Assembly: GCA_031271405.1 (NCBI GenBank)
Contig: JAISVT010000011.1
Coordinates: 1-59,155 of the forward strand
From: Candidatus Endomicrobium macrotermitis
GTDB lineage: Bacteria; Elusimicrobiota; Endomicrobiia; Endomicrobiales; Endomicrobiaceae
Direction of reading: 5' to 3'
DNA length: 59,155 bases
Positions 1-10,270 of this stretch are shown one piece after another. A model generated the notes under the pieces. The model was not told the origin of the DNA. It searched no databases and saw nothing but the letters and a program-made list of their open reading frames with translations. Position 1 is the stretch's first letter; each line of letters begins with the position of its first letter. Both the position numbers and the translations under genes were made by a program.

Positions 1-205
1 TTCTTCAACTACAGCTTCTTCCTCAACAACCGGTTCCTCTTCAGCTACAACCTCTTCTTCAACTACAGCTTCTTCCTCAACAACTGGTTCCTCTTCAGTT
101 ACAACCTCTTCTTCAACTACAACTTCTTCCTCAACAATCGGCTCCTCTTCAACTACAACCTCTTCTTCAGCTGCAGATTCTTCCTCAACAGCCGCTTCCT
201 CTTCT
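1..205. repeat. 54-bp in-frame tandem repeats encoding an acidic tail
   Basis: The sequence TTCTTCAACTACAGCTTC recurs with a 54-base period, starting at 1 and 55, with more diverged copies to about 205. On the minus strand each unit encodes 18 residues built from EEEPVVEEEAVV-like blocks of the giant protein. The array continues past the window edge, so copy number is unknown. Such arrays can vary in length by slippage; that is inference. Confidence 0.9.
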
Positions 206-3200
206 TCGCCCTCTTCGGCACCTCTAAAACCACGCATTCTACTGTCGGAAAGGAGTGTGCCTTCTCTAAAATTAGGATTCGCCGTAAGTATTTTAGGTTT
301 ACTAATCTCATCATTATCATTCAAAGAATATTTCTCATATACTTCTTCTATGGTAACGGCTGCGTCAATAGTATTATCTTTTGAATCATAAAGATATATT
401 ACTCCGCCTTTGCTGTACAGCCTTACAAAATGTCCGACTCCTTCCTGAATGTACAAAACGACTTCCTCTCCATCGGCCAAGGCAGACCGCAAGCCGTTTA
501 TATCCACGATATAACCTTTATATTTTGGTCCGAGGACTTCCGCAACGGCGCCCATTGAAGTCAACATTTGATTTTCGGAAACATCAAATCCAAAGCCTCC
601 GGTTTTAACGGATGCTCTTATAAGATCTCTTGAAAGGCCTTCAATATTAATGGGATCCAACTGACCGCCAAGCACCTGAGCCAATACCTTCACCGCACAG
701 TTAACAGGATTAATATCTTCAGATTGAGCAGTATTTACAATTATTCCGCCGTTTTCATCAAAATCGAAAACCCTAATGGCGCCTTCTCTTATGGACTGTT
801 CAATAATATTATTCACTTCAGAATCGCTATATCCCCCGGAAGACATTAACAACTCTCTAAGTTCATCCATTGTTCCGACATTTTCCAACACATTAATCTG
901 TACGTCTGTCATAATCTGCTGCTGCGTTTGAACAGCCACCGCTGCTTGTGCGTCAACTGCCCTGTTTGCAAACATAGGAAAAATCATTCCTGCGTTAAAT
1001 GTAGTAGCCATGAGTTTAAATGCGGATTTATTGTTAAAGAAACGAAATAATGCCGCCAGCACCGGATTTACTTTAGGTTTGTTTTTATCAAAATTTTTCT
1101 TTAAAATATCGTTAAGTTTATTTCCGTCAATAAAGATATTAGGTACATTTCCAAATAATCTTCTCTTGTTAAACAGCCCTCTCAACACTACGCCAATGCC
1201 TATCGCTGCTGTAATTCCAACTGCAGCAACAACTATAGGATTTGCCGCCACAATACCGGCTATCGCTGTAAAGTTTGTTACCACTAATGCCGCTATTGTC
1301 GGGATTGCAGGAACGGCAATCATAAGAATTTTCGACAAACCTGAATCTTTGACATAAAATTTCTGATTTTTTGCCGAACCTTCTATATAAGGCGTTACCG
1401 CTTTTAAAACAATTACTCCTATAGCAGCCAAAACGACTGTTATGCCTATTATAACTATACCTATAGGACCTAAACTCAGTAATGTCGCTCCAAAAGTCCA
1501 CAAGAATCCCGAAATTGCTCCGGCGGATAAAAATCCCGCTATTCTCCAATTACGCGCTTTTTTATCGCTCGCGCTTGTATCTTTTCTTTCTTCATTATAC
1601 GTTCTCTGCAATTGCAAAAATTTCGCTGCTACACCCGCAACTGCAACGATACCTACTATTGCCAAAACTATCGCAGGAACTGTAACTATTGCACCTGCTA
1701 TAAGAAGGCTTGCGATTTTTGCAATGGCAGCCAAAGCAAAAGCGGAAACAACGCCGGTGGTAAGAGACGAATAAATATATGATGTATCTGTGACTACATT
1801 TTCTTTTGTTATTGAAGGAATTACTCTTCTGTTAGCAAATCTCGCAATTCCGGTTAAAAGTACACCCGCGCCTGCAAAGATTAAACCGGCAATAATTAAA
1901 GGAGCCCCGACAGAAGAAAATATGCCTATGACGGTGAGAGCAACAGAGGAAAATATCAAAGAGGTAGTTATACTCTGCGAAATTCTGTTAAGCGTTCCTT
2001 TTATGGCTTTTGTTCTATTCTCTTTGCTGTAATTATATTCATATGTTTTATATGCAACATCAAGGCTGTGTTTTGACTGATATCTTCCCAATTTATCCCA
2101 AAAAGTTTTTTTGCCTACATACAAACCAAGCAATACTGCGGCAACCAATGCAACCGGAAGCGCAATACTTGAAACGGAAAAACCGGCAATGACCAAAGCG
2201 GAAGCTTTTACAATAAATCCCGCAGTAACAATAACCGACCCTGTAAGAAGCATTGGTAAGAAGGGAACTAACATATTTGCAAGAGAAAGCCCGCGCGAAA
2301 AAATAAAATTCCCCGCATCGGAGAAAAAGTCCCTGATTTGATTTCTGCTAAATCTTGTTTTAACCGTCTTCGTATTGAAACCCGCCACATCTGCTTTTTG
2401 AATTTGATTAAAACCTCTGTTTGCCATACGGTAAAATCTGGCAACGCTTAACTCTTTGGGTGTTGTTCCTGCCTTTTGAATAAACCAATTGATTATTCTA
2501 TTTCCGAAAACAAAATTACTTCTGTTTTCAACATCAGATATCGCATTTAAGAAATTTCTCTTCGCCGCCAGCAACTCATTGTATTTTTGCTCTCTTATTG
2601 CTTCGGCAATAACCTCTCCGTCCTCACGCGTAGTCTTTCCGTTTGCCTGAGCAAGCTTTACATAATCTTCAGGCGTCAACGCATCTCCAAAATAAACTCT
2701 CTGCCAAGCTTTACTATCACTCCCTTTTTGAAATAAAGAGAGAATATCATTTATCCTGTCTCTGAAAAACGATATTCTGTCATCGGTTATTTGTGTAACT
2801 TGCGAAGACAATCTTTCATTGTCTCTGACTGATTCGGCCTGTTCAAAATATTTAACACCTTCTTCTGCGTTCTGCTGATACTGCTCATTTTGCATAATCT
2901 GATATACAATCGGGAAAAGGCCTTTGCTCTCATATATTTTACTGTCTTTACCCATATCGGATAAGAATTTTTCTATCCTTGCTATTTCTTCGGCAGAAAA
3001 ATCCACTTGTATAGACGCGCTTGTTTCAGGACTTGCGCTAATTAAACTTAATATATGTTGAACGCTGTCGCCTGATTTTTGTTGTAATTCTTCCAAAGCT
3101 CCTACATATTCGTAAAAACCTGCATCTCCGTCGCCTCTTTCAGCCCTGCCCGAGTCCTGAACACGTACAATTTTACTTGATACTCCTGTACCGAATTTAT

Positions 3201-6200
3201 AAATTGTAACATTGGAAAAACTCACTCCGGTCGACAAAACATTGGTATGTACTATAACAGCTCCTCTTTCCAAAAGACCGGCAACTGTATTGCGAAATTT
3301 ATCGCCTAATATACTTTTTAATGTATAATCCACAAAAAGTATGGCATTATTAACCTTGGTGCTATCTATGAAAGCATCTCTTAAAGCCATAAATACACTT
3401 TCTAAAGCTTCTCTTTTGGCTTTCGAGAACTTTTGCAGTGCCTCGGCTTCCTTTAAATTTCTCTCAAGCGCTTCTATTTTTTCCGATTCGGATTTTTTTT
3501 CTTTGGCTTCACTTAATCTGGCTTCGGCTATCCTAACTTCGACATCCGCTTTACGTTCTGCATCAATAGCAATATCAAGTTCTGATTTTTTTGCTCTCAA
3601 TTCTTCAGTTGAAAGAACCGACATATCACTATTTTCTTCTACTATTGTACTTATTAGTTCTTCTCCGGCATCTAAAGAATCAACCCTTACCATAGAAGCA
3701 ACATCACTGCTGACGCTTCTTAAATCTTTTATACGGTTTGCAATATATGTATTTGCCTGCTTTACGGTTTCAAGAATTCTCATTCCGGCATTAACGCCTC
3801 TGGGTTTAACATCCGAGGCATCGCTCTTTCTCCTTTCAGCCTCAGACAAATCTAAATCAACTACTTCTTTTCCCAGAATATCTCTTACAAAATCCCCGAT
3901 AAGCGATAAAGATCCGGACAATCCTGTCATTCTTTCAAGCCTGTTTCCGAACAGTTTTTTGTACACATATAAAAGCATTATCTGGTCTTCAATCTGGTTT
4001 TGAAGAGAAGCATAATCAGGATTATTTGCAACGGCAATTGCAACGGCAAGAAGATGATCTGAAGGGGCTTTTCCGACCTCGACTTCGTTAGTTAAATCAT
4101 TAACCGGAGCGCTGACTCCTCCTGAAGTTTCGGAAAGGCCGGCACCCGACATATAAAATTTTCTTGCCGTCAAAGCTTGGCTTATCGCAACAGTCCATGT
4201 CCTGCTTAAAGCTTTGGGACTTGGTAATATTCTTATTTCCGAACCCGAACTTTCAACTCTTTCGAATAACTCTTCCTGTAAAGCTTCATAAAACGGCGAG
4301 TATTCGCCGTCTTTTCCGCTAAAAACGTCATACTGCGCATTCAAACGAACTTTGTGAGCCGACTCTTCAACGGAAAACGCCTTTTTTTGTTCAGTTTCAT
4401 TAAGAGCAAGCAGCCTTTCTGCAACTTTGTCAGCATGTCTTGCCACCAACAAATTTAATTCTGCGTCACCTTTAGGATTATTCCCGGAAATTATAAGAGG
4501 CGTTACAAAATCGGTTCCTATTAACTGATCGGCTTCGTCCGCAATAGTGTAAAAATTTCTGCCGGAAGACAATAATTCGCCCGACATATCTTCAAAGCCT
4601 ATTCTGCTAGGAACGGTAACCAAAATAGAAGTCTGTTCCAATAATTCTTCCAGGCTGCTTCTAATTTCATCAGCTTGACGTACGCCATTTTCAAATCTAA
4701 CAAGTCTATATTCATCGTCTAAAAACACGCCTATTGAAAAACTTCCTTTCTTTACTATTGCGTCAAGCACAGCCGGATGATTAATAATTTCGGCTAATCC
4801 GTCGGCACTCTGGTCAACGAGAGTTTTATTGGCAGTCGTTATAATAAGAAAATCCGACGGAGTTCTTTCTTCTTCTGTAAGCCATTTTAAAGCGGAAAGA
4901 TTTATCATACCGCTTTTACCGCCGCCCATTTCTTTTTGAAACAGTGTGTTTTCCCAGCCGCTTCGAATGCTATTTGCACCTTCCACCTGACCTTGAGTGG
5001 GATCGCTTTCTATTTCAAAATTTTTGCCTATAGTCTGCCTCATAGCTGCATAAAACGCATTCAGCAGATTGTCATTGCCAAATGCTTTTCTATTTCTTTC
5101 AGCCCTTTCGGCAGGAGATAACAAAGTTTCGGTTACTTCTGCTGCGGTTACTGCTGCTTGTCTTGAAAATCTTCCCTTCAACGAATTCCAAAGATTTGCC
5201 GAGGCATCTTGTATGACATTAGGCATAAAAGTCCACGCATCGCCAAGAAAAACGGCAAGTTCAGAACGGCCGGGATTATTAAAATGCCTCAATTCATGCA
5301 TAAGAAATACTTTAAGGAATGTTCTATATCTTATATTCAGGCCATCTGAAGGCGAAGTAAAAAATTTGCCAAAAAGGCTGGGGTTTACGTAAATTACTCT
5401 ATTGCCTTCGTCATTTAAACCTACCTTAGCAAAAGTATATTTATTGAAACCAAACTTTTCCTTTATTTCATCGTTTGCAAATTCAAATCTGGCATCAGAT
5501 TTTCCTTTTGCGCTATCGGGAATTAAAGAGAGAGACCGCTGCAGCAAATCATTATCGCTTCCATCGCTGGTCGTAATAGAATTAACCGCAAGAACAAACG
5601 ATTCGGCTAAACCGGTTAAACCCAAAATACCTAAAACTGCACCGAAAGCTATAACAAAAGGAGCAAAGAACACACCGATAACAGAAATCCCGCTTACCAA
5701 TAAAGGAATTGACAAAGCCATTAAAGCCGCGCCGATTACGCCGGAATTTAATGCAGATTTAGCTTTTGGCGCTTCCGATGAAGTTCCGCCGGTACGTACA
5801 AAAGAGCCATTTTCATAAGAATAGATATTTCCATTTGCATTAAGTTCAACATTTCCGGCCGCGGAAACAGAAACTTCAGCCGCAATGCTTAATTTATTAG
5901 CAGATATAATTTGTTTTAAAACATTACTTATCGCAGTAGCCACATTTGAGTCAATTTTGCCGCCGGCTGCTGCATAAACATTTGCAATATATGCAAGTTG
6001 TTCAGTCGTAGGCAACTGACTGATGTTTAAAGTCGCCAATGCCTGAAAAGAAATTTTGCTTTGTTCTTTTGCGATTTTATAATAAGTTTCTTCGGCTACC
6101 TGCACGCCGCCGGTTACGTTGGGGGTTATTACTACGTAGGATATGTTATTTTTGGCTAAAAGCGCCGACACGCCTTCGGTGTGAAAACCGCCGGTAATTA

Positions 6201-7740
6201 TTACTTCCACGTTTTTGGCGTCTCTTAGCGAAGCAATGACTTTTTCCGTATCGGTTCTTTCTGCGGCAATATCGTCTTTCAATACGACGGGCACGGAAGC
6301 ATTGATTCCGTCTATGTTGTCAATGAAGTATTTGTTTCTGTCAATGTTGATATAGTAAAATTTATCTGCTTCTTTTTCGTACTCTTCCAAAAGGGCGAGT
6401 TTTTTATTATCGACATACTTTACCCAGAGATTTTTAAACTGTTCTACATTTGCCCTGTAATATTCGTAATCGTCGGATGTAATTTTGCTCGAATAAAAAT
6501 CTCTCAAATACTTTACAAACCCCGCCAAAAACACCACTTCTCTTTCGCTGTTGTTTGTAGAAAATTCAAAGTTTATTTCGGAAGCAAGCCTTTCTTCTTC
6601 TTTCAACATTTCCAACGGATTTACTTTCTGGCTTAAGTCTATGTAATTAAAAAATTTATTCAGTTCCGGGAAATTGACAGACAAGTCAATTTGGTTCTCT
6701 TTTGAAATCTTTACGAAATAAGTATAAAGCCTGTCGAGTTCCGTAAAATTGTTTGTGGCCTCGGTTATCATTTTGTAAGCCGAAAAAGGCAAAACTTCTT
6801 TCAGCTTGTACACAAACCCTTGAAGTTCCTGCGTAGCTCTTTCATAATTTATTTTCTTGCCTTCAGCCAAAAGATTTACATAAGCCCCGATATTTTCGTA
6901 TTTGTACATATCTATGCCGAGGTTGTCGGTATGTTTAGCCATCAACGCAAAATATTTTTTCGCATCGCATAGTCCGGCGGCATATTCTTTTGACAACTCG
7001 TCAATTTTTTGCTGTCTCCTGTTGAAGTACATCCCTTTAAGTATGTCTGCGTCGGCTTTGATACTGTCTAAAACAAGAGAAATGTCCGATTGAGAATTTA
7101 ATATATCTCCGAATCTTTTAAGATTTGCAAGATATTCTTCTTTGTTTTCAAGCCCCTTGATCACTGTAGGCCGGTTGCTCGTTACGGAATAATATTCGGC
7201 GCCCGTAAGCCTGCCGCCGTCAATCAATGCGGAAAGAACTTTTTCTTTAACGTCTTTATCGGATATATTTGCAAGCCACGAAGTATCAACCTGCCCGTAC
7301 GCGCCTTCAAGGTAAACGTTCTTGACGCCGTATTCTTTATCGAAAGTATTTATGATATTGCTTATATTCTTTTGCGTTTCCGGATGCGAATGCAAATCCT
7401 GAATATTGATTATCACTGTATCGCTGCCCGCAAAATTTGATGACGTGATTCTGCCGTAAGAATACGGAAGCGTAAAATCCGAAAACACTTGTTTAAACTG
7501 CTCGGTTTGTTTTATGTTATCGACAACCATTGCAACGCTTTGCCCGTAAACAAAAGACAAGAGAAAACAATTAACTATAAAGATAGCAATAAGTTTTACG
7601 GCATTAAGTTCGGAAACCCAGAGAGCGGCTCTCCCCGACTGTTTTGCCGCGCCGGAAATTAAAGACGATATCAGCATCTTTAATTTTTCTTTAAACTTAT
7701 CCATAAAACCCCCGAATGTTAGATTATTAATTGTTTTCAT
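1..7740 (-). CDS. Giant multidomain membrane protein, C-terminus off the window (at least 2,580 residues)
   Basis: One reading frame stays open from the ATG at 7740 to the left edge; I traced it by translation. Visible order from the N-terminus: a membrane segment (about 48-66); a region with QDLH (about 114), LEGA (about 145) and ITGGFHTEG (about 516-524) that recalls TraB/ChaN-like folds; a hydrophobic pair (about 660-700); HELRH (815-819); MGGGKS (938-943) and DEAD (1068-1071), followed near 1530 by SGRAERGDGDAG, resembling SecA motif VI; a long series of hydrophobic segments (about 1810-2190); a C39-like region with NCAVKVL (Cys 2348) and GHFVRLY (His 2437); and a Glu-rich repeated tail. 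The start is supported by GGAGG upstream and by an ATGA overlap with the preceding gene. Enzymatic activity of any region is inference; the Walker A and motif VI matches are degenerate. The family resembles giant proteins I recall from Elusimicrobiota/Omnitrophota. Confidence 0.85.
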   Translation of the reverse strand, partial: MKTINNLTFGGFMDKFKEKLKMLISSLISGAAKQSGRAALWVSELNAVKLIAIFIVNCFLLSFVYGQSVAMVVDNIKQTEQFKQVFSDFTLPYSYGRITSSNFAGSDTVIINIQDLHSHPETQKNISNIINTFDKEYGVKNVYLEGAYGQVDTSWLANISDKDVKEKVLSALIDGGRLTGAEYYSVTSNRPTVIKGLENKEEYLANLKRFGDILNSQSDISLVLDSIKADADILKGMYFNRRQQKIDELSKEYAAGLCDAKKYFALMAKHTDNLGIDMYKYENIGAYVNLLAEGKKINYERATQELQGFVYKLKEVLPFSAYKMITEATNNFTELDRLYTYFVKISKENQIDLSVNFPELNKFFNYIDLSQKVNPLEMLKEEERLASEINFEFSTNNSEREVVFLAGFVKYLRDFYSSKITSDDYEYYRANVEQFKNLWVKYVDNKKLALLEEYEKEADKFYYINIDRNKYFIDNIDGINASVPVVLKDDIAAERTDTEKVIASLRDAKNVEVIITGGFHTEGVSALLAKNNISYVVITPNVTGGVQVAEETYYKIAKEQSKISFQALATLNISQLPTTEQLAYIANVYAAAGGKIDSNVATAISNVLKQIISANKLSIAAEVSVSAAGNVELNANGNIYSYENGSFVRTGGTSSEAPKAKSALNSGVIGAALMALSIPLLVSGISVIGVFFAPFVIAFGAVLGILGLTGLAESFVLAVNSITTSDGSDNDLLQRSLSLIPDSAKGKSDARFEFANDEIKEKFGFNKYTFAKVGLNDEGNRVIYVNPSLFGKFFTSPSDGLNIRYRTFLKVFLMHELRHFNNPGRSELAVFLGDAWTFMPNVIQDASANLWNSLKGRFSRQAAVTAAEVTETLLSPAERAERNRKAFGNDNLLNAFYAAMRQTIGKNFEIESDPTQGQVEGANSIRSGWENTLFQKEMGGGKSGMINLSALKWLTEEERTPSDFLIITTANKTLVDQSADGLAEIINHPAVLDAIVKKGSFSIGVFLDDEYRLVRFENGVRQADEIRSSLEELLEQTSILVTVPSRIGFEDMSGELLSSGRNFYTIADEADQLIGTDFVTPLIISGNNPKGDAELNLLVARHADKVAERLLALNETEQKKAFSVEESAHKVRLNAQYDVFSGKDGEYSPFYEALQEELFERVESSGSEIRILPSPKALSRTWTVAISQALTARKFYMSGAGLSETSGGVSAPVNDLTNEVEVGKAPSDHLLAVAIAVANNPDYASLQNQIEDQIMLLYVYKKLFGNRLERMTGLSGSLSLIGDFVRDILGKEVVDLDLSEAERRKSDASDVKPRGVNAGMRILETVKQANTYIANRIKDLRSVSSDVASMVRVDSLDAGEELISTIVEENSDMSVLSTEELRAKKSELDIAIDAERKADVEVRIAEARLSEAKEKKSESEKIEALERNLKEAEALQKFSKAKREALESVFMALRDAFIDSTKVNNAILFVDYTLKSILGDKFRNTVAGLLERGAVIVHTNVLSTGVSFSNVTIYKFGTGVSSKIVRVQDSGRAERGDGDAGFYEYVGALEELQQKSGDSVQHILSLISASPETSASIQVDFSAEEIARIEKFLSDMGKDSKIYESKGLFPIVYQIMQNEQYQQNAEEGVKYFEQAESVRDNERLSSQVTQITDDRISFFRDRINDILSLFQKGSDSKAWQRVYFGDALTPEDYVKLAQANGKTTREDGEVIAEAIREQKYNELLAAKRNFLNAISDVENRSNFVFGNRIINWFIQKAGTTPKELSVARFYRMANRGFNQIQKADVAGFNTKTVKTRFSRNQIRDFFSDAGNFIFSRGLSLANMLVPFLPMLLTGSVIVTAGFIVKASALVIAGFSVSSIALPVALVAAVLLGLYVGKKTFWDKLGRYQSKHSLDVAYKTYEYNYSKENRTKAIKGTLNRISQSITTSLIFSSVALTVIGIFSSVGAPLIIAGLIFAGAGVLLTGIARFANRRVIPSITKENVVTDTSYIYSSLTTGVVSAFALAAIAKIASLLIAGAIVTVPAIVLAIVGIVAVAGVAAKFLQLQRTYNEERKDTSASDKKARNWRIAGFLSAGAISGFLWTFGATLLSLGPIGIVIIGITVVLAAIGVIVLKAVTPYIEGSAKNQKFYVKDSGLSKILMIAVPAIPTIAALVVTNFTAIAGIVAANPIVVAAVGITAAIGIGVVLRGLFNKRRLFGNVPNIFIDGNKLNDILKKNFDKNKPKVNPVLAALFRFFNNKSAFKLMATTFNAGMIFPMFANRAVDAQAAVAVQTQQQIMTDVQINVLENVGTMDELRELLMSSGGYSDSEVNNIIEQSIREGAIRVFDFDENGGIIVNTAQSEDINPVNCAVKVLAQVLGGQLDPINIEGLSRDLIRASVKTGGFGFDVSENQMLTSMGAVAEVLGPKYKGYIVDINGLRSALADGEEVVLYIQEGVGHFVRLYSKGGVIYLYDSKDNTIDAAVTIEEVYEKYSLNDNDEISKPKILTANPNFREGTLLSDSRMRGFRGAEEGEEEEAAVEEESAAEEEVVVEEEPIVEEEVVVEEEVVTEEEPVVEEEAVVEEEVVAEEEPVVEEEAVVEE

Positions 7741-8442: not shown

Positions 8443-9792
8443 TTACACCGGATTGACCAGCATTTTTTGTTCAACCAAACCGGCGTCAATCCATTGCTTT
8501 ATTAGTTCGCCGGTAGGCTCTACAACCGGCTCATACTCGATTATGTTCCCGCTGCCGTCTTCTTTTTCGGCCAAAACATAACCTTTGAATGTGTTGACAT
8601 AATTGAACCCTTCCGGTATCGAAACGATTTTATCGTCAACACTCTTCTTTTTGAAAAAAATCTCGTCCGTACCGTTGGAATAACGCATTACATCGCTGGG
8701 CTGTGTAACCGCCGAACCGAAATCGCCCAGCTGCAAAACAACTTCTCTTCTTTCATTTTTAAAAATCGTAACCTGGCTTGTCCTGACATCCCAAATTCCT
8801 ACAAGCTGCCCCTGATGATACAGATTTTTACTTATGGCTTCGTCATTAAACGAAGTATATAACGTTCTGCCGTCAACATCGTACCAAGTGGTTTCCTGAT
8901 TTTCTCTGTTAAACGTTGAAACAAGCTGCGAACCGTTCCACAAATAATCGACAGTTACAGCTCCGGCGTAATTCTTTGAAACCGTCTGTTTTCCGTTTTC
9001 AAAATACGTAGTTTCTCTTGTCGCAGGGTCAAAAGAACTTTCTAAAACGTGATTGCCTTTGTCGTCATAAACATAGTTATATTTAGAAAGGACAACGCCG
9101 TCTTTATTTTCCGTATACAACATTTCACTATTTTCGGAAAAATGCGTTTTATTTCCGTACATATCGGTTTTTACGCGCATCCTGTTCTTATCGTCATACT
9201 CGTATTTGGCCATACGATTGCCTTCATAATCAAGTTCATACGAAGCAAGACCTTTTTCGTCAAAAACAGTTTTTCCTTTGGTCATTTCGTTTGTAACCGC
9301 GGAGATGGTTTTACCGTATTTGTTATATTCGTAGGTTTTCGTAAGATTATTGTCTTTGTCGTATTCTTTTATGATTTTTCCGCCGATGCCGGTCTCTTTG
9401 GTTGAAAGAAGTTCGCCGAATTCATTCATTACTTCAATCTTATTCGTACCCTTTATGTTGCGAGAGATGCCGGTAAGGTTACCCTGCGCATCCCTTGTTT
9501 TGGTTATGCCGTTAAGAGAATAAGTCGTTTTTCCGTCCTTGGATATGCTCACGGCAAGTCTTCCGTTAGGAGTATAATACAATCTCGATCCTGAAGAGTC
9601 CGTAGCGACTATAGGTCTGTTTGGAAGAATTTGAAACATGCGGTTAGGCTTGGCAAAATCCCTGAGATCTTCAACGCTTCTGCCTTCAGGGCCTATTTTG
9701 TAAGGGTTGGGGGTCGGTAAAAACGATGCGTTTACCGATGACGACGCGAGCAGTATCGATGATATCAACGCCAAGATATTTTTGTTTTTCAT
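8443..9792 (-). CDS. Secreted YD/RHS-like repeat protein
   Basis: 449 residues. The N-terminus (MKNKN, then a hydrophobic run ending in SSVNA) is a clear signal peptide with likely cleavage after VNA near residue 22. The body consists of short beta-hairpin-like repeats rich in Tyr, Asp, Gly and Asn, such as KEYDKDNNLTKTYEYNKYGK and YEYDDKNRMRVKTDMYGNKT, as in YD-repeat proteins of the RHS group. It lacks the long core and the toxin-like C-terminus of true RHS toxins, and the last 60 residues are not repetitive. It is therefore most likely an extracellular or periplasmic structural or binding protein. The start has a strong AGGAGGAA site 8 bases upstream. It has its own promoter, so it is a separate unit from the giant-gene operon downstream. 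Confidence 0.75.
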   Translation of the reverse strand: MKNKNILALISSILLASSSVNASFLPTPNPYKIGPEGRSVEDLRDFAKPNRMFQILPNRPIVATDSSGSRLYYTPNGRLAVSISKDGKTTYSLNGITKTRDAQGNLTGISRNIKGTNKIEVMNEFGELLSTKETGIGGKIIKEYDKDNNLTKTYEYNKYGKTISAVTNEMTKGKTVFDEKGLASYELDYEGNRMAKYEYDDKNRMRVKTDMYGNKTHFSENSEMLYTENKDGVVLSKYNYVYDDKGNHVLESSFDPATRETTYFENGKQTVSKNYAGAVTVDYLWNGSQLVSTFNRENQETTWYDVDGRTLYTSFNDEAISKNLYHQGQLVGIWDVRTSQVTIFKNERREVVLQLGDFGSAVTQPSDVMRYSNGTDEIFFKKKSVDDKIVSIPEGFNYVNTFKGYVLAEKEDGSGNIIEYEPVVEPTGELIKQWIDAGLVEQKMLVNPV

Positions 9793-9871: not shown

Positions 9872-10270
9872 TTACTTGATGTCCGGAATGCCGTAATTTA
9901 CGACCATGATGCGCATTCTTATAGGCTTGCCGTTTATGGTTTTGCCTCTTGTAGGCTCGTATATATTTCCGAAGACTGTCGCGAGCTGCCCTGTATTTTC
10001 GGTCAACTCTTCAAGTTTATCTCCGAATAATACATAATACAAACCGTTCTCGCTGCCTTCGAGATAGAGAGTTTTTTCTTCATCCTCTGCCTGTTTTATA
10101 ATACCTTTCACTTTTACCATCAAATCACTGCTGACTATGTTCGGTTTCAAATATTTTGCTCTCATATATTTTACATATGCATACGGAACCACTAAAATTA
10201 AAGCCGCAATAACCGCGATAATTACCCCAAAAATAACCCATTTCTTTTTATTTTTTTGAGACGGTTCCAT
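9872..10270 (-). CDS. Small single-span membrane protein, unknown function
   Basis: 132 residues. A basic N-terminus (SQKNKKKW) precedes one strong hydrophobic helix (about residues 12-30), so the remaining 100 residues probably face the periplasm. The soluble part is mixed and charged (KVKGIIKQAEDEEKTLYLEG) and ends in a short beta-rich stretch (IRMRIMVVNYGIPDIK). I do not recognise the family. The topology could suit a pilus- or secretion-related accessory protein, but nothing in the sequence shows it. It sits between ribH and the YD-repeat gene and has its own promoter, about 40 bases before the ATG. Confidence 0.6.
   Translation of the reverse strand: MEPSQKNKKKWVIFGVIIAVIAALILVVPYAYVKYMRAKYLKPNIVSSDLMVKVKGIIKQAEDEEKTLYLEGSENGLYYVLFGDKLEELTENTGQLATVFGNIYEPTRGKTINGKPIRMRIMVVNYGIPDIK

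What the first reader, a model, noticed from the sequence alone, without database searches (positions are those of the whole stretch)
1..7740. Giant protein that joins a TraB/ChaN-like region, an HExxH motif, a SecA-like ATPase region, many membrane spans and a C39-like peptidase region
The frame stays open over at least 2,580 codons and carries, in order, QDLH/LEGA/GGFHT, HELRH, GGGKS/DEAD/GRAERGDGDAG, a long hydrophobic series, a Cys/His pair like C39 peptidases, and a repeated acidic tail. Each part is visible in translation. Their combination in one chain is not one I know as a described system; a self-contained envelope export or processing machine is a hypothesis only.
Basis: partly seen in the sequence, partly recalled or inferred. 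Interest (0 to 1): 0.75.

Follow-up and report, generated by a model that had tools for sequence, protein, structure and literature searches.

The report
Secreted giant protein with SecA-like motor
An uncultured termite-gut-type bacterium makes about twenty very large proteins that share the same front end and the same short tail but carry different enzymes in between, and the one in this window carries a relative of SecA, the motor that pushes proteins across membranes.

Summary
One minus-strand frame is open from ATG 7740 to base 1 (2,580 codons). The window is the whole contig, cut inside a 54-nt repeat, so the gene is incomplete; complete proteins at the syntenic locus in relatives have 10,563-11,689 aa. 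The SecA reading is confirmed by profile (E 2.5e-12) and by fold (Foldseek E 2.7e-12, SecA the top 24 hits). HE[L/I/A]RH is conserved. The N-domain is only weakly Tiki/ChaN-like, and the Cys/His region is C39-like only by motif.

The larger finding: this protein belongs to a family in Elusimicrobiota (Endomicrobium and relatives), with about 19 loci (at least 7% of this genome) and tens of matches per genome in other classes. Each member has a signal-peptide-like start, a conserved ~510-aa head, a variable payload (SecA-like; PGI+PGM+UDP-sugar pyrophosphorylase; PPDK; six AAA+ with VWA; RelA/SpoT; MFS) and a C-terminal tail ending [IVLM]L-x-[AGSC][AS] (39/39 in Endomicrobiaceae; 0/376 background ORFs). 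In another class the tail is [IV]QA (10/10) while the tmRNA tag is ANTELALAA.

Best reading: exported polymorphic multi-enzyme giants, this one carrying a SecA-derived motor. Export is inferred, and targets are unknown. Giants with SecA-like domains are, from memory, reported in Omnitrophota; I found no description of the head-payload-tail family.

The parts
1..7740 (-). giant CDS, 2,580 codons seen, 3' end missing (contig end)
   Evidence: contig length 59,155
7546..7602 (-). hydrophobic segment of a signal peptide or anchor after a K/R-rich N-terminus (conserved NCFLL..VYGQ)
   Evidence: 50 of 50 N-complete family members have one
5965..7512 (-). conserved head domain (~510 aa), weakly Tiki/ChaN/EreA-like; QDLH 7401, LEGA 7311, GGFHT 6192
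5284..5298 (-). HELRH motif, gluzincin-like
   Evidence: H, E, R, H and downstream E, V and D invariant in 8 sequences
2530..5067 (-). SecA-like motor region: GGGKS 4926, DEAD 4539, GRAERGDGDAG 3150
1165..2277 (-). series of about 9 predicted membrane spans, shared with G003, G012, G015, G019
265..732 (-). Cys/His/Asp region, C39/papain-like by motif only; present in 2 of 5 relatives examined
1..204 (-). acidic 54-nt tandem repeat at which the contig breaks
7737..8351 (-). 204-aa exported-type protein; stop overlaps the giant's start (ATGA)
8443..9792 (-). 449-aa secreted RHS/YD-repeat-like protein, syntenic with the giant in relatives
9872..10270 (-). 132-aa single-span membrane protein, syntenic

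Best explanation
The gene encodes one member of a lineage-wide family of exported, polymorphic giant proteins of Elusimicrobiota. Shown: a common head with a signal-peptide-like start, a common short C-terminal tail in complete members, and a fast-changing payload in between; in this member the payload is HExxH, a SecA-derived DEAD motor, about 9 membrane spans and a C39-like Cys/His region. Inferred: the N-terminal signal sends the chain through Sec; head and tail act as address or processing signals read by a lineage-specific partner; the payload acts outside the producing cytosol, most likely at or in a partner, host or prey cell, where nucleotides exist, because payloads are extra copies of nucleotide- or sugar-phosphate-using enzymes whose housekeeping copies exist elsewhere in the genome. 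The SecA-like member would be a membrane-embedded polypeptide-moving or unfolding motor coupled to proteolysis.
For: SecA identity. Head in about 19 own loci and 60 of 248 phylum genomes. Signal-like starts 50/50. Tail: 20/20 closed members, 15/15 further Endomicrobiaceae members and 4 C-terminal pieces, against 0 of 376 other ORFs; in class-level relative G163, 10/10 end [IV]QA. Tail differs from the G163 tmRNA tag ANTELALAA. Polymorphic payloads. Stand-alone PGI, PPDK and SecA also present. Head conserved and payload fast: dN 0.108 against 0.80. Operon neighbours carry signal peptides or a span.
Against: No localisation or expression data. No dedicated receptor for the tail found; the S41/CtpA protease is nearly always single-copy with or without giants. 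Relatives G003, G012, G015, G019 and G023 have Q in place of Walker A S/T, and L033 and L046 lack the HExRH motif, so catalysis may be lost in places. The window copy's own C-terminus is not seen. Tail conservation is looser in other families of the order (12 of 17 readable ends).
Confidence: 0.5

Rival explanations
1. A membrane-anchored SecA paralogue working for the producing cell: the motor faces its own cytosol and, with the HExxH and Cys/His parts, exports and trims substrates.
For: SecA fold, membrane spans and protease-like motifs in one chain; conserved operon with secreted proteins.
Against: A normal SecA is present. The signal-like start predicts that the head and motor are outside. 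Paralogues with the same head and tail carry unrelated enzymes.
Confidence: 0.15
2. Surface giant used for attachment or coat, in which the enzyme-like payloads are decaying passengers without activity.
For: Omnitrophota giants are proposed as coat or adhesins (PMC10066038). Walker A changed in five relatives; motifs lost in L033 and L046. High payload dN.
Against: DE, motif VI arginines and HE.RH stay conserved while surrounding sequence diverges. PGI motifs and PPDK phospho-His motif intact in paralogues. Window Walker A intact.
Confidence: 0.2
3. The C-terminal tail is a degradation tag (ClpX/tmRNA-like or tail-specific protease) that controls giant levels rather than an address.
For: ILSAA/LAAA resembles ssrA-type and Prc-type ends; CtpA is present.
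Against: In G163 the tail is [IV]QA while its tmRNA tag ends LALAA. 0 of 376 other ORFs carry it.
Confidence: 0.2
4. Assembly or frame artefact.
For: The contig ends in a repeat.
Against: Independent assemblies hold the same architecture and synteny.
Confidence: 0.01

Closest known systems
SecA preprotein translocase ATPase (Pfam SecA_DEAD PF07517)
   Same: NBD1 motif II, SecA-specific nGk..lvD..Tg region, NBD2 and motif VI; top fold match
   Different: 18-31% identical among its own relatives; embedded in a giant exported-type chain with membrane spans; Walker A altered in five relatives; cell also has a normal SecA
Giant ORFs of Omnitrophota and Velamenicoccus (PMC10066038; West-Roberts 2023 preprint, recalled from memory to report divergent SecA DEAD domains in most full-length giants; text not held)
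   Same: Very large ORFs with many membrane spans, few recognised domains, and by recollection divergent SecA-like domains
   Different: Another phylum; shared head and C-terminal tail not tested there; no homologue found with the tools available
Polymorphic toxin/effector systems (PMC3482391)
   Same: Conserved trafficking part with variable enzymatic payload; that paper notes SecA-like helicase domains in Amoebophilus effectors
   Different: Payloads here are mostly housekeeping-type enzymes in the middle of the chain; tail is constant; no immunity genes identified
Tiki/ChaN/EreA/TraB superfamily
   Same: QDxH, VEG and GGFH motifs; Pfam ChaN hit E 0.0023 in a distant head; EreC best globular fold hit
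   Different: Below curated cut-off; large helical insert; no significant fold match

Membership tests
SecA ATPase | SecA_DEAD sequence profile | tested here: met
   All 6 members match, best E 3.6e-12; A2 profile hits SecA chains at 2.5e-12. The window copy alone is below the cut-off.
SecA ATPase | SecA fold (two NBDs with PPXD) | tested here: met
   Foldseek top 24 all SecA, E 2.7e-12, prob 1.00; pLDDT 69, pTM 0.41; TM-scores low, domain packing unsure
SecA ATPase | Walker A GxGK[ST] | tested here: inconclusive
   GGGKS in the window, GGGK[ST] or GAGKS in three divergent relatives; GKGKQ or GGKQ in five relatives
SecA ATPase | Drives preprotein translocation with SecY | not testable with these tools
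   needs biochemistry
Tiki/ChaN/TraB/EreA | Family profile above curated cut-off | tested here: not met
   best E 0.0023, 18.4 bits against 27.7; none for Endomicrobiaceae heads
Tiki/ChaN/TraB/EreA | Fold match | tested here: inconclusive
   EreC rank 2 at E 0.45; nothing below 0.001
M48/M56-type gluzincin | HExxH plus downstream E | tested here: met
   H39 E40 H43 E51 D58 invariant in 8 sequences
M48/M56-type gluzincin | Family profile or fold | tested here: not met
   no Pfam peptidase hit; region modelled with low confidence
C39 peptidase | C39 profile above cut-off and Q..DC.x.C motif | tested here: not met
   E 0.094 in one of three members; C, H, D conserved but N-C-A context
Giant exported family described here | signal-like start plus head | tested here: met
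Giant exported family described here | C-terminal [IVLM]L-x-[AGSC][AS] tail | tested here: inconclusive
   window copy truncated; complete syntenic SecA-like orthologues G015 and G097 end RQILSAA and GILAAA
Polymorphic toxin system | adjacent immunity gene | not tested
   no search for immunity genes was made

The most novel reading that the evidence does not exclude
Elusimicrobiota have a dedicated, undescribed export and sorting route that recognises a conserved head and a lineage-specific C-terminal tail and delivers multi-enzyme giants, including exported extra copies of core machinery such as SecA, PGI and PPDK and a six-AAA+ chain, to other cells.
Probability: 0.3. Interest if true: 0.88.

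Novelty: new variant of a known kind. Interest (0 to 1): 0.68.

Why it matters
Giant proteins are common in Elusimicrobiota and Omnitrophota, and their function is an open question. A constant head and a constant, lineage-specific tail give the first handle that I know of for counting them, for finding their export partner, and for testing where they go. Payloads that duplicate housekeeping enzymes, SecA among them, are unexpected for exported proteins. Most genomes of reduced intracellular relatives show none, and some carry broken copies, which links the family to life among other cells.

Tried and rejected
A single-sequence Pfam scan of the giant gave only weak DEAD (E 0.0022) and chance hits. 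The first genome-contig scan with the SecA part found nothing. Profile of distant heads against PDB sequences: chance hits only. Viral contigs: no relatives. tmRNA-tag mimicry as the whole explanation of the tail rejected for G163. S41 protease copy number gives no correlation. Pfam on 6,140 aa of the 10,988-aa orthologue beyond the motor: nothing. An attempt to test Omnitrophota directly was not possible with the searches left. My notebook entry saying 17/17 for the second tail set is wrong; the count is 15/15.

Full report
1. The observation. The minus-strand frame runs without a stop from 7764 to base 1. The likely start is ATG 7740: GGAGG lies before it, the upstream 204-aa ORF ends in an ATGA overlap with it, and relatives begin MKTINN at the same place. 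The 3' end is missing because the contig (59,155 bp) breaks in a 54-nt acidic repeat.

2. Homologues of the whole chain. Five relatives carry the same head, HE[L/I/A]RH, motor and, in four, the membrane region. More distant versions of the motor occur in other named MAGs of Endomicrobiaceae. The gene cluster 132-aa membrane protein, 449-aa RHS/YD-like secreted protein and giant is syntenic across many of them; the 204-aa ORF is syntenic in a smaller set. Complete proteins at the syntenic locus have 10,988 aa (G015), 11,689 aa (G097) and 10,563 aa (G021). The motor is recognised in G015 and in the G097 contig; in the G021 contig (L033) only its first part matches and HExRH is absent.

3. The motor. 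The window copy alone barely matches, but a six-sequence profile finds SecA chains in the PDB (E 2.5e-12), all six members match SecA_DEAD (best 3.6e-12), and the predicted model (mean pLDDT 69, pTM 0.41) has SecA as its top 24 Foldseek hits (E 2.7e-12). The aligned SecA-specific stretch after the DEAD box argues against a generic helicase. DE and the motif VI arginines are invariant. Walker A is canonical in the window (GGGKS) and in L020, L028 and L032, but carries Q in place of S/T in G003, G012, G015, G019 and G023. The genome has a separate ordinary SecA.

4. HExxH, head, Cys/His. HExRH with downstream E and D is invariant in eight sequences; it is absent in L033 and L046. The head is modelled well (pLDDT 82, pTM 0.80) but has no significant fold match; EreC is the best globular hit at E 0.45. 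Distant heads from other classes hit Pfam ChaN/Tiki at 0.0023 and 0.0059, under the cut-off, and QD.H, EGA and GGFH are invariant across the phylum sample aligned. So it is ChaN/Tiki-like, not a demonstrated member. The Cys/His region is shared with G003 and G019, with a C39 hit of E 0.094 in one member.

5. The family. A profile of the head finds about 19 loci in this genome, 60 of 248 phylum genomes, all sampled families of the order, and 22-61 matches each in four genomes of other families of the phylum. Matches are not proteins: some chains give more than one. Heads sit at the front of long frames of up to 12,656 aa. In this genome they sum to about 47,000 aa, 140 kb or 7.4%, a lower bound because many are cut by contig ends (my sum). 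G001, a single 1,588,979-bp contig and probably E. proavitum (my inference from its size), has none; many reduced genomes of one genus (g8) have none, and one (G063) has copies with internal stops.

6. Payloads. Other copies in this genome carry CofD+HAD; UDP-sugar pyrophosphorylase + PGI + PGM; six AAA_5 domains + VWA; HD_4; PPDK; RelA/SpoT; PLP enzyme; CBM48 + amylase; calcineurin phosphoesterase; MFS; APH; several of these (RelA/SpoT, PLP, APH, VWA, amylase) are below Pfam's cut-off. PGI motifs and the PEP-utiliser His motif are intact. Stand-alone PGI lies directly upstream of the PGI-bearing giant in G000, and beside the corresponding head-bearing giant in G003, G012 and G015; in G003 and G015 PGI was not detected inside that giant. 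Stand-alone PPDK also exists. PPDK-bearing giants with the same head occur in G000, G012, G037 and G163, so that pairing is old. Head evolution is slow (dN 0.108, dS 1.14) and the motor fast (dN 0.80, dS 2.2, near saturation) in the same gene between two species of one genus.

7. The tail. All 20 closed members in the first set (three further closed frames were set aside because they are fragments or frame-broken), 15 of 15 in a second Endomicrobiaceae set and four C-terminal pieces end [IVLM]L-x-[AGSC][AS]. Of 379 other ORFs three matched, and all three are pieces of giants, leaving 0 of 376. The pattern was written after seeing the first members, so the second set is the fairer test. Position -4 is Leu in 23 of 23 and only the last ~12 residues are shared. 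In other families of the order 12 of 17 readable ends finish A[A/G] (some of the others may be misread ends). In G163, of another class, 10 of 10 end [IV]QA, while its tmRNA tag is ANTELALAA. A tail that is constant within a lineage and changes between lineages suggests recognition by a partner; which partner is unknown. S41 protease does not track the giants.

8. Function. Positive N-terminus followed by a hydrophobic segment (50 of 50 members, simple hydropathy test, no control computed) predicts export of the rest. Payloads need nucleotides or sugar phosphates, which are cytosolic, and housekeeping copies exist. I therefore favour action in or on other cells, but this step is inference. The SecA-like member is most likely a membrane-embedded polypeptide motor; activity is untested.

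9. Known or new. Giants in Elusimicrobiota are counted in PMC11573180 and discussed with Omnitrophota in PMC12057145 and PMC10066038. From memory, the West-Roberts 2023 preprint reports divergent SecA DEAD domains in most full-length Omnitrophota giants; the text is not held and I could not check it. The 2024 Endomicrobia genome paper does not use the terms searched. I found no description of the head-payload-tail family. I rate this as a new variant of a known kind.

Noticed in passing
L113:277-15852 (G000:C36): 5,192-aa giant with a VWA-like region (MIDAS DNSGS) followed by six dynein/midasin-type AAA+ domains in a bacterium, behind the same head and ending VLCAS.
   Followed up: partly
L112:3692-14872 (G000:C21): Giant with UDP-sugar pyrophosphorylase, PGI and PGM, directly downstream of the stand-alone pgi gene; the pgi-giant adjacency recurs in G003, G012 and G015.
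   Followed up: partly
G163 giants, L175-L184: All ten C-termini end [IV]QA, a different but equally constant tail in another class of the phylum.
   Followed up: partly
G063:C20:17147-18631: Head domain with five in-frame stops in a 1.1-Mb relative, suggesting decay of the family during genome reduction.
   Followed up: no
L109 end and L211 end (G000:C62 and C44): The two contigs share an exact 119-base end overlap; together they hold one head plus PPDK giant ending NILAAA.
   Followed up: yes
window 8443-9792: Secreted RHS/YD-repeat-like protein found next to the giant at this locus in many relatives; role unknown.
   Followed up: partly
L042:2324-17376: Two head-bearing giants in tandem.
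   Followed up: no
L030:9878-17856: One giant split by a frame break; the downstream piece keeps the tail SILGAA.
   Followed up: no
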